A DNA stretch of 46,260 nt, taken from positions 1 through 46,260 of the forward strand of contig JAHFVC010000006.1 of NCBI GenBank assembly GCA_023264765.1. Direction: 5' to 3'. Position numbers and translations under genes: made by a program. Numbering within the stretch: position 1 is the stretch's first letter; each line of letters begins with the position of its first letter. The notes beneath the pieces are model-generated. The model saw nothing but the letters and a program-made list of their open reading frames with translations, did no database searches and was not told the origin of the DNA. This stretch comes from Mycobacterium sp. (GTDB lineage Bacteria; Actinomycetota; Actinomycetes; Mycobacteriales; Mycobacteriaceae). Below are positions 9,946-45,047 of this stretch, one piece after another.

Positions 9946-11394
9946 ATGCGTATGGACAGTGCTCTGGTAGAACAACTTGCCGGCAGGACCGTGCTCGTGG
10001 TCGGTGATTTGATGGTCGACCGATTTGTTTATGGAGACGTCGCGAGGATCTCGCCCGAAGCGCCCATACCGGTTCTCCGCTTCCGTGAGGAAGTGGCGAT
10101 GCTTGGAGGCGCGGGTAACGTCGCCCGAAACATTGTGGCGTTGAACGGGAATGCCGCCCTGATCGGTGCGGTCGGGGACGACAGTGACGGTCGGTACGTA
10201 ACTGAGGAACTTTGCCCGTCTGCGGGCATCGAAGACCGGTCGATTCGGACGGCGACGTGCCCGACAATCATCAAAACCCGGTACGTGTCCTCCGGACAAC
10301 AAATTCTCAGACTGGACCGGGAAGAGACAAACCTCGATAGTGAAGCGTTGGAGAGAAGCAAGTCGGCTGTCCGTAATTCGCTGCCGAGTGTCGATGCCAT
10401 GATCTTGTCGGACTACGCGAAGGGCATGTTGACGCGCGATACCATCGCGGCGCATATATCTGCCGCAAAAGCTATGGGAATTCCAGTCGTCGTCGATCCT
10501 AAGTCTGCTGACCTGACCTTGTATCAGGGTGCTGATGTCATAACGCCGAATGCCAAAGAAGCAACCACTGCCACTGGCTTCGACTGCTCAACCGACAGTG
10601 GAGCAGCCGATGCAGCGGAGGCAATACAGACCGCCACCCGGGTGAAGGCCGTCTTGATAACACGCGGCGCGCAGGGCATGACGCTTCACGCTCCCTATGC
10701 CGGTGTCGAAAGCGCGATGCACATTCCCACCAGAGCCTCGTCGGTCTACGACGTCTCAGGCGCCGGCGACACCGTGGTAGCGACGCTGTCGCTGGCGTTG
10801 TCGGCTGGGCTCGACATCAGAATTGCGGCGCAACTCGCCAACGTCGCGGCCGGTGTCGTCGTCGGGAAGCTGGGCACGGCTGCGGTGAGCATGGAGGAGC
10901 TCGTGCAGTCGGTTACCGAGGCCGAGGAGCGAGCCTTCATGACCAGGGAGCAGGCATTGGCAAGAGTCAGACACTGGCACCGATCCGGGCTTCGTGTCGG
11001 CTTCGCAAATGGCTGTTTTGATTTGGTTCATCCCGGTCATGTGGCCTTGCTCCGGCGTGCCCGCGAGCAATGCGATCGCCTTGTGGTGGCACTCAACACC
11101 GATGCGTCGGTAAAGCGTTTGAAAGGGGAGAGTCGGCCCGTGCAAGATGAATCCTCACGTGCGGCGGTGATCGGCTCGTTGCGCAGCGTGGACATGGTCA
11201 CGTTGTTCGGCGAAGACACGCCATTGGAACTGATCGAGCTTCTCAAGCCAGACGTTTTGTTCAAAGGCGAGGATTACACGATCGCCGAGGTGGTCGGAAG
11301 TGACCTGGTGACTCGATGGGGTGGCGTGGTCTCGCTGATTCCACTTGAACAAGGCCACAGCACCTCTAGCATTATTGCGCGGTCTGTTACCTAG
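9946..11394 (+). CDS. hldE: Bifunctional heptose-7-phosphate kinase / heptose-1-phosphate adenylyltransferase
   Basis: Protein of 482 residues with both HldE domains. The N-terminal PfkB/ribokinase-type kinase (about 1-315) has an SGAGDT motif with catalytic D275. The C-terminal nucleotidyltransferase (about 340-480) has GCFDLVHPGH with H362 and H365, and an ending (GHSTSSIIAR) typical of HldE. It phosphorylates D-glycero-beta-D-manno-heptose 7-phosphate at C1 and, after GmhB acts, adds AMP to give ADP-heptose. ATG 9946 is preceded by GGAAAG 7 nt upstream; GTG 9943 and ATG 9952 are alternatives. It is the first gene of a five-gene operon. The adenylyltransferase domain excludes the GDP-heptose (HddA/HddC) branch. 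The assignment is strong. Confidence 0.93.
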   Translation: MRMDSALVEQLAGRTVLVVGDLMVDRFVYGDVARISPEAPIPVLRFREEVAMLGGAGNVARNIVALNGNAALIGAVGDDSDGRYVTEELCPSAGIEDRSIRTATCPTIIKTRYVSSGQQILRLDREETNLDSEALERSKSAVRNSLPSVDAMILSDYAKGMLTRDTIAAHISAAKAMGIPVVVDPKSADLTLYQGADVITPNAKEATTATGFDCSTDSGAADAAEAIQTATRVKAVLITRGAQGMTLHAPYAGVESAMHIPTRASSVYDVSGAGDTVVATLSLALSAGLDIRIAAQLANVAAGVVVGKLGTAAVSMEELVQSVTEAEERAFMTREQALARVRHWHRSGLRVGFANGCFDLVHPGHVALLRRAREQCDRLVVALNTDASVKRLKGESRPVQDESSRAAVIGSLRSVDMVTLFGEDTPLELIELLKPDVLFKGEDYTIAEVVGSDLVTRWGGVVSLIPLEQGHSTSSIIARSVT

Positions 11395-11406
11395 GGTGAG
11401 TTGAGA

Positions 11407-12393
11407 ATGCACATTGTGACCGGCGGTGCCGGATTTATCGGCTCTAATTTTGCCGCTGAGTTAGATGACCTCGGTCATGACATTGTCCTAGTGGACTTTC
11501 TGGGAACTGACGACTGGAAGTGGCGAAACATCGCGAAACGCCGAGTGCGTGATATCCTCACCCCCGACGAACTCCCGTCATTCTTGAGTCGAAATACCGA
11601 TATCGAATCGGTCGTTCATATGGGCGCTATTTCAACTACGACCGAGCGCGACGTCGACCTTATCGTGCGCTCAAATTTCCGGCTATCGGTCGATCTGTGG
11701 AATTGGTGCCACCAAGCGAGGGTGCCCTTCGTGTATGCGTCGTCTGCGGCCACATATGGAGATGGGGGGCAAGGGTTCGTTGACGATTTCAGCGGGTCGG
11801 CACTCGCATCGCTGCGGCCTCTCAACCCGTACGGTTGGAGTAAGCACGCATTTGACCGATGGGTATTTTCCGAAACGACATCCGGCCGGAGTCAGCCACC
11901 GAAATGGGCCGGACTGAAATTCTTCAACGTCTACGGTCCCAACGAGTATCACAAGGAGGGGCAGCGTAGTGTCGCGGTCCAACTCTTTGAACAGATAATG
12001 ACTGGCGATCAGGTGCGACTCTTCAAGTCCGACAATCCTGACTACGTCGATGGTGGTCAACTTCGCGACTTCGTCTGGGTCGGCGACTGTGTCGACATCG
12101 CACTCTGGCTACTGGGTCACGACGATGCGCCTTCGTCGGTATACAACGTCGGGACGGGCCGACCGCGTTCGTTCGAGGATAAGGCGAATATAATGTTCTC
12201 GCTCTTGGAAAAGCCGGCGAGAATAGAGTTCATTGAATTGCCCGAAAAGCTGCGCGGCAAGTACCAGTATTACACGTGTGCGTCTCTTGACAAGCTGAGA
12301 GCGGCGGGCTTCGACAAGCCTGTCACTACACTCGAAGACGGCATCCAGAAGTACCTCCACGACTATCTACTCCGCGAAGACATATTCCGGTAA
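11407..12393 (+). CDS. hldD: ADP-L-glycero-D-manno-heptose 6-epimerase
   Basis: Protein of 328 residues, an extended short-chain dehydrogenase/reductase. It has the NADP-binding TGGAGFIGSN (residues 5-14), catalytic Y142-GWS-K146, and the HldD/RfaD hallmarks FFNVYGPNEYHK and GKYQYYT. It inverts C6'' of ADP-D-glycero- to ADP-L-glycero-manno-heptose. ATG 11407 was preferred to TTG 11401 because GGTGAG lies 6 nt upstream and the protein then begins MHIVTGGAG. It starts 12 bp after hldE, and its stop overlaps the next start (TAATG), indicating co-translation. With HldE it defines an ADP-heptose rather than GDP-heptose pathway. Confidence 0.93.
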   Translation: MHIVTGGAGFIGSNFAAELDDLGHDIVLVDFLGTDDWKWRNIAKRRVRDILTPDELPSFLSRNTDIESVVHMGAISTTTERDVDLIVRSNFRLSVDLWNWCHQARVPFVYASSAATYGDGGQGFVDDFSGSALASLRPLNPYGWSKHAFDRWVFSETTSGRSQPPKWAGLKFFNVYGPNEYHKEGQRSVAVQLFEQIMTGDQVRLFKSDNPDYVDGGQLRDFVWVGDCVDIALWLLGHDDAPSSVYNVGTGRPRSFEDKANIMFSLLEKPARIEFIELPEKLRGKYQYYTCASLDKLRAAGFDKPVTTLEDGIQKYLHDYLLREDIFR

Positions 12394-43610: not shown

Positions 43611-43682
43611 TTTACCCACTAGCACTGAGCAGCCGACAGTGAACCGAAAACTCGGGCAAACAGTAGCGAACAAGGGACGCCA

Positions 43683-45047
43683 TTGACACTGCAGCACTTT
43701 CTGAAGCTATTGCGCACGAGGTGGGTCACCGTTTGTACGGCGACGGTGGCTGCCGTCCTGGTCGCCATCGCGATCACATGGCTGACCACTCCTCTGTACA
43801 AAGCGTCAACAAGACTGTTCGTGTCGACATCGGCAGGAAGCTCGTTATCCGATGTCTATCAAGGAAACCGGCTCTCCCAAGAGCGGGTTATCTCGTACGC
43901 ACAGTTGCTTATGGGCGAGACGCTTGCGCAGCGCACCATCGACAAGCTCGGGCTTGACATGCGTGCGGAGTCATTGCAGGAGAACGTCAAAGCTACGGTG
44001 AAGCCGGACACGGTACTCATCGATGTGGACGTCCTGGACGTTTCGCCAGTTCAGGCTCGCGATATTGCGAACGCATTGTCAGACGAATTCGTCCTGATGG
44101 TTCGAGAATTGGAGACGCCGGCGAGCGGCACCGCACCTGACGCGCGTGTGGTCGTTGAGCAACGTGCATCAGTTCCCGAAGTTCCTGTGTCCCCCAACAA
44201 GATCCGTAACCTTGCACTAGGGCTTGCGGTGGGCGTTGTACTCGGCATCGGGCTGGCTATACTTCGCGATCTTCTGGACAACACGGTCAAGAACCGCGAA
44301 ATCCTAGAAGAGATTACGGATGTGGGCGTCGTCGGTGGTATCCAGCTCGACAAAGAGCGTCGAAAGACGCCGCCGATCTTTTTCGGTAAGGACAACAGTG
44401 CCATCGCGGAATCCTTCCGAAAGCTCCGCACCAATCTGAGCTTCCTCACGGTCGACAACCCGCCGCGGGTCATCGTCATCACCAGCTCGATTCCAAGCGA
44501 AGGAAAGTCGACCACCGCCATCAATATCGCTTTGGCGCTGGCGGAAAGCGGTAACAACGTGGCGTTGGTCGACGGCGACATGCGCAGGCCGACGGTGCAC
44601 AAATATCTCAACTTGGTCGGCACGGTGGGATTCAGCACCGTGCTCAGTGGGGCGGTGCCGCTCTCCGAAGCGTTGCAGGCGTCGCATTTCGACGGACTTA
44701 CGGTTCTGGCGGCCGGCACGACCCCACCCAACCCGAGTGAGCTATTGGCTTCGCAGGCTGCCACCAAAATTCTGGCCGAGCTGCGTGGCAAGTTCGACTA
44801 CGTGATCGTCGACTCGTCGCCATTGCTCGCCGTCACGGATGCCGCGATCTTGGCGGCAAACGCCGACGGGGCGCTGATCATGGCTCGGTACGGCCAGACC
44901 AAACGCGAACAGCTAGCACAGGCGGTCGGTACCCTCCACGACGTCGGGGCCACCCTGCTCGGTGCGGTGTTCACCATGATCCCGGCGAAAAACAACACGG
45001 CCTACGCGTACTCGTACAGCTATTACGGAGAATCCAAACCCAAGTAA
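43683..45047 (+). CDS. wzc: Wzc/CpsCD-type bacterial tyrosine kinase with chain-length domain
   Basis: Protein of 454 residues. An N-terminal Wzz/chain-length domain is bounded by helices at about 15-37 and 175-197 with an external loop of about 140 residues. A cytoplasmic BY-kinase domain follows: Walker A SSIPSEGKSTT (K275), Walker A' ALVDGDMRRP (D297, D299), and Walker B VIVDSSP. The end is a tyrosine cluster (AYAYSYSYYGE), the autophosphorylation tail. It controls polymer length and export through cycles of phosphorylation, presumably reversed by the phosphatase at 37145. The TTG 43683 start gives MTLQHFLKLLRTRW, with AAGGGA nearby upstream. The fused form is normal for actinobacteria. 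Confidence 0.9.
   Translation: MTLQHFLKLLRTRWVTVCTATVAAVLVAIAITWLTTPLYKASTRLFVSTSAGSSLSDVYQGNRLSQERVISYAQLLMGETLAQRTIDKLGLDMRAESLQENVKATVKPDTVLIDVDVLDVSPVQARDIANALSDEFVLMVRELETPASGTAPDARVVVEQRASVPEVPVSPNKIRNLALGLAVGVVLGIGLAILRDLLDNTVKNREILEEITDVGVVGGIQLDKERRKTPPIFFGKDNSAIAESFRKLRTNLSFLTVDNPPRVIVITSSIPSEGKSTTAINIALALAESGNNVALVDGDMRRPTVHKYLNLVGTVGFSTVLSGAVPLSEALQASHFDGLTVLAAGTTPPNPSELLASQAATKILAELRGKFDYVIVDSSPLLAVTDAAILAANADGALIMARYGQTKREQLAQAVGTLHDVGATLLGAVFTMIPAKNNTAYAYSYSYYGESKPK

What the first reader, a model, noticed from the sequence alone, without database searches (positions are those of the whole stretch)
9946..45047. Candidate undescribed mycobacterial Wzx/Wzy polysaccharide locus
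The sequence shows an initiating sugar-phosphate transferase, flippase, polymerase, BY-kinase, LMW phosphatase, two glycosyltransferases, sugar-nucleotide genes, O-methyl, O-acetyl and O-acyl modifying enzymes and two lyase-family genes within 35 kb. Mycobacterial capsule is best known as alpha-glucan, arabinomannan and mannan made without Wzx/Wzy. A complete Wzx/Wzy-type set beside a TPP locus would imply a heteropolysaccharide not known to me from mycobacteria. Gene families are seen; joint function is inferred.
Basis: partly seen in the sequence, partly recalled or inferred. Interest (0 to 1): 0.85.

Follow-up and report, generated by a model that had tools for sequence, protein, structure and literature searches.

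The report
Mycobacterial heptose capsule locus lacking GmhA
An unnamed mycobacterium carries a variable gene cluster that likely builds a sugar coat containing heptose, a seven-carbon sugar, and its heptose operon lacks the usual first enzyme (GmhA), whose job an unrelated enzyme family is predicted to do.

Summary
In detail: initiating transferase, flippase, polymerase, Wzz/BY-kinase, LMW phosphatase, two glycosyltransferases, sugar-nucleotide, decorating and lyase-family genes lie at the stated coordinates beside a TPP-type locus. Flippase and polymerase models match WzxE and WaaL folds.

It is one of a family: WcaJ-type orthologs occur in 20 of 297 genomes of the genus. Three species carry such a locus at the TPP site, with shared frame genes around different interiors, like a serotype locus.

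Genes 9943-15116 form an ADP-heptose operon (HldE, HldD, AGE-family protein, GmhB-like, GT9) without GmhA. All 5 mycobacterial genomes found with AGE at the hld genes have no GmhA-family (SIS_2) match; all 9 others tested have one, beside hldE in 8. Six alphaproteobacterial plasmids also pair AGE with HldE without GmhA nearby, one as an AGE-HldE fusion. I propose that AGE makes heptose-7-phosphate from sedoheptulose-7-phosphate.

The polymer, its heptose and the AGE activity are inferred, not shown. Nine literature searches found no description of either.

The parts
1157..2671 (+). PapA3-like acyltransferase, TPP flank
   Evidence: Condensation 55.7 bits; 91-94% identity to the M. canariasense copy and the part of the G234 copy read
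2767..5745 (+). MmpL10-like transporter, TPP flank
   Evidence: MMPL 602 bits
5742..6881 (+). PE-PPE domain protein, TPP flank
   Evidence: PF08237 200 bits
7784..9619 (-). FadD-type acyl-AMP ligase, TPP flank
   Evidence: AMP-binding 186 bits
9943..11394 (+). HldE, heptose-7-P kinase / heptose-1-P adenylyltransferase
   Evidence: TIGR02198 352.6 and TIGR02199 186.4 bits, both over cut-off; whole-protein PRK11316 483.8 is under its 521
11401..12393 (+). HldD, ADP-heptose 6-epimerase
   Evidence: TIGR02197 360 bits, cut-off 274.6
12393..13583 (+). AGE-superfamily protein; proposed sedoheptulose-7-P isomerase in place of GmhA
   Evidence: PF07221 232 bits; H186, H249, E252, H380 the same in 12 of 12 aligned sequences; no SIS_2 match in the genome
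13576..14100 (+). GmhB-like HAD phosphatase
   Evidence: TIGR01656 and TIGR01662 over cut-off; PRK08942 153 under 178
14100..15116 (+). GT9 glycosyltransferase (heptosyltransferase family)
   Evidence: PF01075 50.5 bits
15175..15978 (-). TylF-type O-methyltransferase
   Evidence: PF05711 94.6 bits
16407..16982 (-). Hexapeptide-repeat acetyltransferase
   Evidence: PF00132 46 bits
17401..18660 (+). Wzx-type flippase
   Evidence: model pLDDT 90, best PDB match WzxE 9g9p; some homologs with PF01554 or PF01943
18811..20943 (+). AT3-SGNH acyltransferase
   Evidence: PF01757 and PF19040
21035..21811 (-). GDSL/SGNH hydrolase
   Evidence: PF13472 63 bits
21887..23779 (-). AT3 acyltransferase
   Evidence: PF01757 130 bits
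24248..25120 (+). GDSL/SGNH hydrolase
   Evidence: PF13472 71 bits
25185..27068 (-). Heparinase II/III-like lyase family protein
   Evidence: PF07940 113 bits
27199..28641 (+). Wzy-type polymerase (start probably 27361)
28772..29926 (+). AT3 acyltransferase
   Evidence: PF01757 113 bits
29935..31032 (-). Polysaccharide lyase family protein
   Evidence: PF14099 43 bits
31119..32456 (-). GT4 glycosyltransferase
   Evidence: PF13692 85 bits
32482..33741 (-). UDP-sugar dehydrogenase (Ugd type)
   Evidence: TIGR03026 363 bits, cut-off 190
33938..35485 (-). Initiating polyprenyl hexose-1-P transferase (WcaJ type)
   Evidence: TIGR03025 393 bits, cut-off 296; WcaJ equivalog 360 under 411
36506..37138 (-). 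SfLAP/Gap-like membrane protein
   Evidence: PF11139 192 bits
37145..37849 (-). LMW protein tyrosine phosphatase (true start probably inside the ORF)
   Evidence: PF01451 86 bits from residue 59
37782..38651 (+). RmlA (ORF from 37551; start set by eye)
   Evidence: PF00483 240 bits
38651..39649 (+). RmlB
   Evidence: PF16363 242 bits
39595..41085 (+). RmlC-RmlD fusion
   Evidence: PF00908 132 and PF04321 223 bits
41716..43572 (+). DUF4012 protein
   Evidence: PF13196 149 bits
43683..45047 (+). Wzz / BY-kinase
   Evidence: TIGR01007 173 bits, cut-off 108; Wzz 31.8 bits

Best explanation
This stretch carries every core gene family of the Wzx/Wzy polysaccharide pathway and an ADP-heptose operon without GmhA, so it most likely makes an exported heptose-containing heteropolysaccharide, with the AGE-family protein at 12393-13583 predicted to do GmhA's step. 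[quoted passage not shown] This is the mannose-6-P isomerase reaction on a substrate one carbon longer, with the same configuration at C2-C5. (2) HldE, GmhB and HldD make ADP-L-glycero-D-manno-heptose (inferred from families). (3) The WcaJ-type transferase loads a hexose-1-P on the polyprenyl carrier, and GT4 and GT9 extend it with heptose and probably glucuronate from Ugd (inferred). (4) Wzx flips and Wzy polymerises the unit, with the Wzz/BY-kinase and LMW phosphatase setting chain length (inferred from families and folds). (5) Methyl-, acetyl- and acyltransferases decorate it, and two lyase-family proteins trim it (inferred). The locus looks like a serotype slot: frame genes shared, interior different between species (shown for the loci read).
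For: Gene families. Folds: Wzx, Wzy. Slot: the window, M. canariasense (L012 + L227/L228) and G234 have the frame genes (WcaJ, Gap, PTP, RmlABCD, DUF4012, BYK) beside TPP genes around different interiors; M. sp. J2 has the frame and another interior, but its contig ends before any TPP gene. Of 12 loci read at 40-60 kb, G234 among them, 8 have DUF4012 + BYK + PTP in the same stretch. The hldE-hldD-AGE-gmhB-GT9 order recurs in M. adipatum G034 (58-72%) and M. aichiense G727 (59-72%). GmhA test: SIS_2 in 0 of 5 mycobacterial genomes with AGE at the hld genes and in 9 of 9 others, beside hldE in 8 of those 9 (the same search rings in 9 of 14 control genomes). The last two AGE genomes were found after the idea was formed, though one, G718, is a near copy of G288. 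All 5 AGE genomes keep an ordinary type I mannose-6-P isomerase gene, so AGE is not needed for that. Plasmids: of 14 hldE loci read (of 31 records with 80% or more of HldE covered), 6 have AGE and no GmhA, 4 GmhA and no AGE, 4 neither, 0 both. In Rhizobium sp. CC-CFT758 AGE and HldE are one 890-aa protein. The aldose-ketose isomerase YihS (sulfoquinovose isomerase) is among the PDB relatives of AGE.
Against: No product, transcript or enzyme assay is known to me. The window's own Wzx has no Pfam hit, and the MOP fold alone does not tell Wzx from MATE or MurJ. Its Wzy falls under the curated cut-off. Only two glycosyltransferases beside the initiator were found, so either the repeat is short or others lie elsewhere. 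Near relatives of AGE also sit outside hld operons (7 of the 10 plasmid loci read for AGE), and hld-linked AGEs are not shown to be one clade (support 68/18). Four plasmid hldE loci have neither AGE nor GmhA, so lack of a neighbour proves little there. The own genome is only 92.3% complete. G288 and G718 are near copies (mostly 86-95% gene identity), so the five AGE genomes are about three lineages. I picked the 11 comparison genomes and the 14 plasmids by hand.
Confidence: 0.68

Rival explanations
1. The AGE protein is a GlcNAc/ManNAc 2-epimerase or a mannose-6-phosphate isomerase that supplies another sugar of the polymer, and the heptose branch gets its first intermediate from an unseen enzyme or is incomplete.
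For: PF07221 members include 2-epimerases. Relatives at 39-44% sit outside hld operons; one is annotated Pmi and one lies beside a phosphomannomutase. Some sources name close homologs mannose-6-phosphate isomerase.
Against: No SIS_2 match in 5 of 5 genomes. An ordinary type I mannose-6-P isomerase gene is present in all 5. There is an AGE-HldE fusion and pairing with hldE in six plasmids. NCBIfam's GlcNAc 2-epimerase and mannose isomerase models score far under cut-off (65 of 600 and 24 of 600).
Confidence: 0.22
2. The Wzy-like protein is a ligase that moves an oligosaccharide onto a lipid or protein, so the product is a lipooligosaccharide or glycoprotein and not a polymer.
For: PF04932 is named for O-antigen ligase, and the best structural match is the WaaL ligase.
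Against: A Wzz/BY-kinase and an LMW phosphatase, the usual chain-length pair, are present. Lyase-family genes suggest a polymer.
Confidence: 0.15
3. The interior is a decayed or wrongly assembled insert with no function.
For: Lower G+C and a draft assembly.
Against: All listed frames are open. The hld operon order is kept in two other species, and the same site holds polysaccharide genes in M. canariasense and G234.
Confidence: 0.05

Closest known systems
Wzx/Wzy-dependent EPS clusters of actinomycetes (wps-1/2/3 and imp of Actinoplanes missouriensis, PMC13390465; passages read)
   Same: Predicted Wzx, Wzy, Wzz and sugar transferases in one cluster
   Different: The word heptose does not occur in the paper's main text; a different lineage; here a frame shared by several mycobacteria with different interiors beside a TPP locus
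[quoted passage not shown] tuberculosis (GmhA, HddA, GmhB, HddC; PMC7705670, passages read)
   Same: Heptose made from sedoheptulose-7-P; GmhB step
   Different: ADP- not GDP-heptose by gene content, and no GmhA
Gram-negative ADP-L,D-heptose pathway (GmhA, HldE, GmhB, HldD; recalled)
   Same: HldE, HldD and GmhB families
   Different: GmhA missing; an AGE-family protein stands in the operon
AGE superfamily isomerases and epimerases (cellobiose 2-epimerase 3wkf, sulfoquinovose isomerase 7ag4)
   Same: Fold family; catalytic His and Glu conserved
   Different: Operon with HldE and GmhB; the proposed sedoheptulose-7-P substrate turned up in no paper searched
TPP cluster of pks, papA3, mmpL10, pE and fadD23 (PMC10465359; passages read)
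   Same: Gene types of the window's left flank
   Different: The polysaccharide genes lie beside it; no functional link shown

Membership tests
Wzx/Wzy-dependent polysaccharide locus | Polyprenyl hexose-1-P transferase | tested here: met
   TIGR03025 over cut-off
Wzx/Wzy-dependent polysaccharide locus | MOP-fold flippase | tested here: met
   WzxE top structural match, E 1.2e-6, MATE and MurJ next; no Pfam hit on the sequence itself
Wzx/Wzy-dependent polysaccharide locus | Wzy polymerase | tested here: met
Wzx/Wzy-dependent polysaccharide locus | Wzz / BY-kinase and LMW phosphatase | tested here: met
   TIGR01007 over cut-off, Wzz and LMWPc over cut-off
Wzx/Wzy-dependent polysaccharide locus | A polymer of repeat units is made | not testable with these tools
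   No chemistry available
ADP-heptose pathway | HldE and HldD | tested here: met
   TIGR02198, TIGR02199, TIGR02197 over cut-off; PRK11316 and PRK11150 under
ADP-heptose pathway | GmhB phosphatase | tested here: inconclusive
   TIGR01656 and TIGR01662 met; PRK08942 153 under 178 and TIGR00213 134 under 150
ADP-heptose pathway | GmhA (SIS_2) isomerase | tested here: not met
   0 matches in the own genome, 92.3% complete; 0 in 4 relatives with AGE at the hld genes, each listed as 100% complete
GDP-heptose pathway of M. tuberculosis | GmhA and HddA kinase | tested here: not met
   No GHMP kinase or SIS_2 hit among the window's 38 scanned ORFs; both are present in the M. sp. J2 interior
AGE superfamily (PF07221) | Family profile and catalytic His/Glu | tested here: met
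   232 bits against 23.4; H249/E252 align with H259/E262 of 3wkf by my count on the printed alignment, their catalytic role being recalled; the same in 12 of 12
GlcNAc 2-epimerase (NF052547) | Curated score 600 | tested here: not met
   65 bits
TPP locus | pks, papA3, mmpL10, pE, fadD23 | tested here: inconclusive
   Four of five gene types seen at family level; no pks in the bases before 1157

The most novel reading that the evidence does not exclude
An AGE-superfamily enzyme is a second, unrelated sedoheptulose-7-phosphate isomerase that replaces GmhA across phyla, and in mycobacteria it feeds ADP-heptose into a capsule-like Wzx/Wzy polysaccharide whose interior genes are exchanged between species like a serotype locus.
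Probability: 0.55. Interest if true: 0.82.

Novelty: new variant of a known kind. Interest (0 to 1): 0.68.

Why it matters
If right, some mycobacteria have a surface glycan class not known for them, made by the Wzx/Wzy pathway known from other bacteria's capsules and varying between species at one site. That would bear on phage receptors, antigens and biofilms. It would also fill the first step of the heptose pathway with an enzyme family not linked to it in the papers searched. That would explain hld operons without GmhA in bacteria as different as Rhizobium and Mycobacterium, and one enzyme assay can test it. ADP-heptose is also an innate immune signal in Gram-negatives (abstracts listed), so mycobacteria that make it would be worth checking.

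Tried and rejected
First reading of L012 (M. canariasense) as an empty site was wrong: a longer stretch showed its interior between fadD and pE. Foldseek gave no significant PDB match for Wzy; the second aligner, which only re-ranks Foldseek's candidates, did. A phylum-wide search with AGE alone found only the own genome (1 of 396). Rfam and tRNA scans were empty. Repeats of 25 bases or more in 7000-46260: one direct pair (39370, 42801), none that looks like an island edge. HldE tree: the window's HldE groups with alphaproteobacterial, planctomycete and a few mycobacterial HldE, away from the common mycobacterial type (branch 99/96), so horizontal transfer is likely; order inside that group is mostly unresolved. 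Dropped rows: the Rhizobium CB3090 AGE was left out of the AGE tree because its best tblastn row held a stop, and the Agrobacterium AGE, which lies in two pieces, was not put in. 17 of the 31 hldE plasmid records with 80% or more covered were not read: Proteus 2, Salmonella 1, E. coli 4, Klebsiella 3, Aeromonas 1, Streptomyces 4, Nonomuraea 1, Azospirillum oryzae 1. Three of the 14 read (L205, L208/L224, L213) were first fetched because of an AGE hit, so the plasmid share with AGE is not a random sample. GmhA in plasmid loci was sought by tblastn with three GmhA queries in stretches of about 12-17 kb only. Fisher tests (mycobacteria p 0.0008 with M. sp. J2 left out as it has no full HldE, all loci p 0.0002) ignore relatedness and choice.
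Full report
What is there. The window is bases 1-46260 of a 49471-base scaffold in a 586-contig draft genome; the next ten bases are N. Bases 1157-9619 hold PapA3-, MmpL-, PE-PPE- and FadD-type genes, the gene types of the published TPP cluster apart from pks, which is not in view (PMC10465359, passages). From 9943 to 45047 lie the genes listed under parts, found by Pfam and NCBIfam.

A family of loci with different interiors. WcaJ orthologs at E 1e-100 or better are in 20 of 297 genomes of the genus, the own one included. 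Wzy relatives are in 6 of 297, four of them strong, the own one included. In genome contigs 148 WcaJ relatives were found and the best 80 kept; these include 19 mycobacterial loci at 64-83% identity and one contig labelled Verrucomicrobia at 75%. In M. canariasense and G234 the same frame genes sit beside the same TPP genes. G234 has a Wzx of 31%, a Ugd of 84% and a moved BYK. M. canariasense has its interior between fadD and pE, with a Wzy-, a pyruvyltransferase- and a GT4-type gene that are 63-66% identical to those of M. sp. J2. J2 has wcaJ, gmhA, gmhB, a GHMP (HddA-like) kinase, a pyruvyltransferase, GT4 and Wzy. Of 12 loci read at 40-60 kb, 8 carry DUF4012, BYK and PTP together, 11 carry PTP, and interiors differ. 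This resembles capsule serotype loci (recalled). Interior G+C is 0.583 against 0.645 in the TPP flank; the M. adipatum interior is also 0.583 against 0.641 over its 60 kb.

The heptose operon. HldE, HldD, AGE, GmhB-like and GT9 genes overlap or lie within a few bases of each other (9943-15116). M. adipatum (G034) has the five genes in the same order at 58-72% identity, and M. aichiense (G727) at 59-72%, both between BYK and PTP. M. rhodesiae JS60 (G288) and M. sphagni (G718) have HldE, GT9, an AGE of about 34% and GmhB, with no HldD match in the stretches read. A different HldE, about 36% identical, is common: 70 of 297 genomes have a near-full-length HldE at E 6e-53 or better, the window's included. 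The window's HldE groups with alphaproteobacterial HldE and a few others instead.

GmhA is absent where AGE is present. SIS_2 was sought in 14 mycobacterial genomes. The five with AGE at the hld genes have no match (own genome; G034 and G288; G727 and G718). The nine others, chosen by me, all have one, directly beside hldE in eight (positions); the ninth, M. sp. J2, has it beside wcaJ. G727 and G718 were found by a larger draw (5 of 366) after the idea was formed and behaved as predicted, though G718 is a near copy of G288. Two other genomes, G196 and G234, have weak AGE matches (1.9e-15, 5.7e-13) away from the hld genes and do have GmhA. In plasmids I read 14 of 31 hldE loci with 80% or more covered: AGE without GmhA in Gemmobacter fulvus, Agrobacterium pusense, Sulfitobacter S223, Rhizobium CB3090, Gluconobacter sphaericus and Rhizobium CC-CFT758; GmhA without AGE in Azospirillum brasilense, Sagittula, Arthrobacter and Embleya; neither in Azospirillum thermophilum, Planctomyces, Paludisphaera and Roseibium; both in none. 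In CC-CFT758 AGE and HldE are fused (Pfam PF07221 + PfkB + CTP_transf_like). Whole-genome absence of GmhA was not tested for the plasmid hosts.

Why an isomerase. PDB relatives of the AGE profile include cellobiose 2-epimerases, GlcNAc 2-epimerases and the aldose-ketose isomerase YihS. The catalytic residues are the same in 12 of 12 aligned sequences, three of them from outside hld operons, so they do not single out a substrate. Relatives outside hld operons are annotated as mannose-6-P isomerase or lie beside phosphomannomutase. Mannose-6-P to fructose-6-P and heptose-7-P to sedoheptulose-7-P are the same reaction with the same configuration at C2-C5 (established chemistry). All five AGE genomes also keep a type I mannose-6-P isomerase gene, so AGE is free for another substrate. 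This is inference; I know of no assay.

Literature. Nine searches of open papers listed no paper that I recognised as describing a mycobacterial Wzx/Wzy polysaccharide or AGE as a GmhA substitute; I saw listings and starts of abstracts, at most 25 rows a search. Papers seen as passages only: PMC13390465, PMC10465359, PMC7705670. Most subscription journals and all preprints are not held, so absence there is unknown.

Verdict. The locus is real and is a new lineage of a known pathway (high confidence). A heptose polymer is likely. GmhA replacement by AGE is the most novel and most directly testable claim (about 0.55-0.7).

Noticed in passing
G217, G180, G196, G297 (L174, L177-L179): 70 of 297 genomes of the genus carry a near-full-length HldE; most are of another type (about 36% identity). 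In the four such loci read, SIS_2, gmhB, rmlB-like and ugd-like genes lie nearby: a second, common mycobacterial heptose locus of unknown product.
   Followed up: partly
L219:4798-7470: Natural fusion of an AGE-family protein with HldE (890 aa) in Rhizobium sp. CC-CFT758.
   Followed up: yes
window 41233-41634: Small ORF (133 aa) between rmlCD and DUF4012, with a signal-peptide-like N-terminus by eye and no Pfam hit; an ORF of 125-137 aa stands at the same place in M. canariasense, M. sp. J2 and G234 (82% identity between the first two).
   Followed up: no
L023: Contig labelled Verrucomicrobia MAG carries a WcaJ 75% identical to the window's and a PTP: probably a mycobacterial contig binned wrongly.
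   Followed up: no
window 39595-41085: RmlC and RmlD fused in one protein.
   Followed up: no
L218: Gluconobacter sphaericus plasmid has GmhB-like, HldE and AGE genes beside genes annotated as capsule biosynthesis and polysaccharide export, so AGE-type heptose may serve ABC-type capsules too.
   Followed up: no
L208, L224: On the Agrobacterium pusense plasmid hldE, hldD and AGE each match in two pieces, from frameshifts or sequencing errors.
   Followed up: no
P0001, P0002: The database lists the window's Wzx and AGE on a 112507-base contig, so a longer assembly of this organism may exist.
   Followed up: no
L012 and L026; L022 and L029: M. canariasense has WcaJ relatives on two contigs, and M. 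sp. OAS707 has two about 20 kb apart, so one strain may make more than one such glycan.
   Followed up: no
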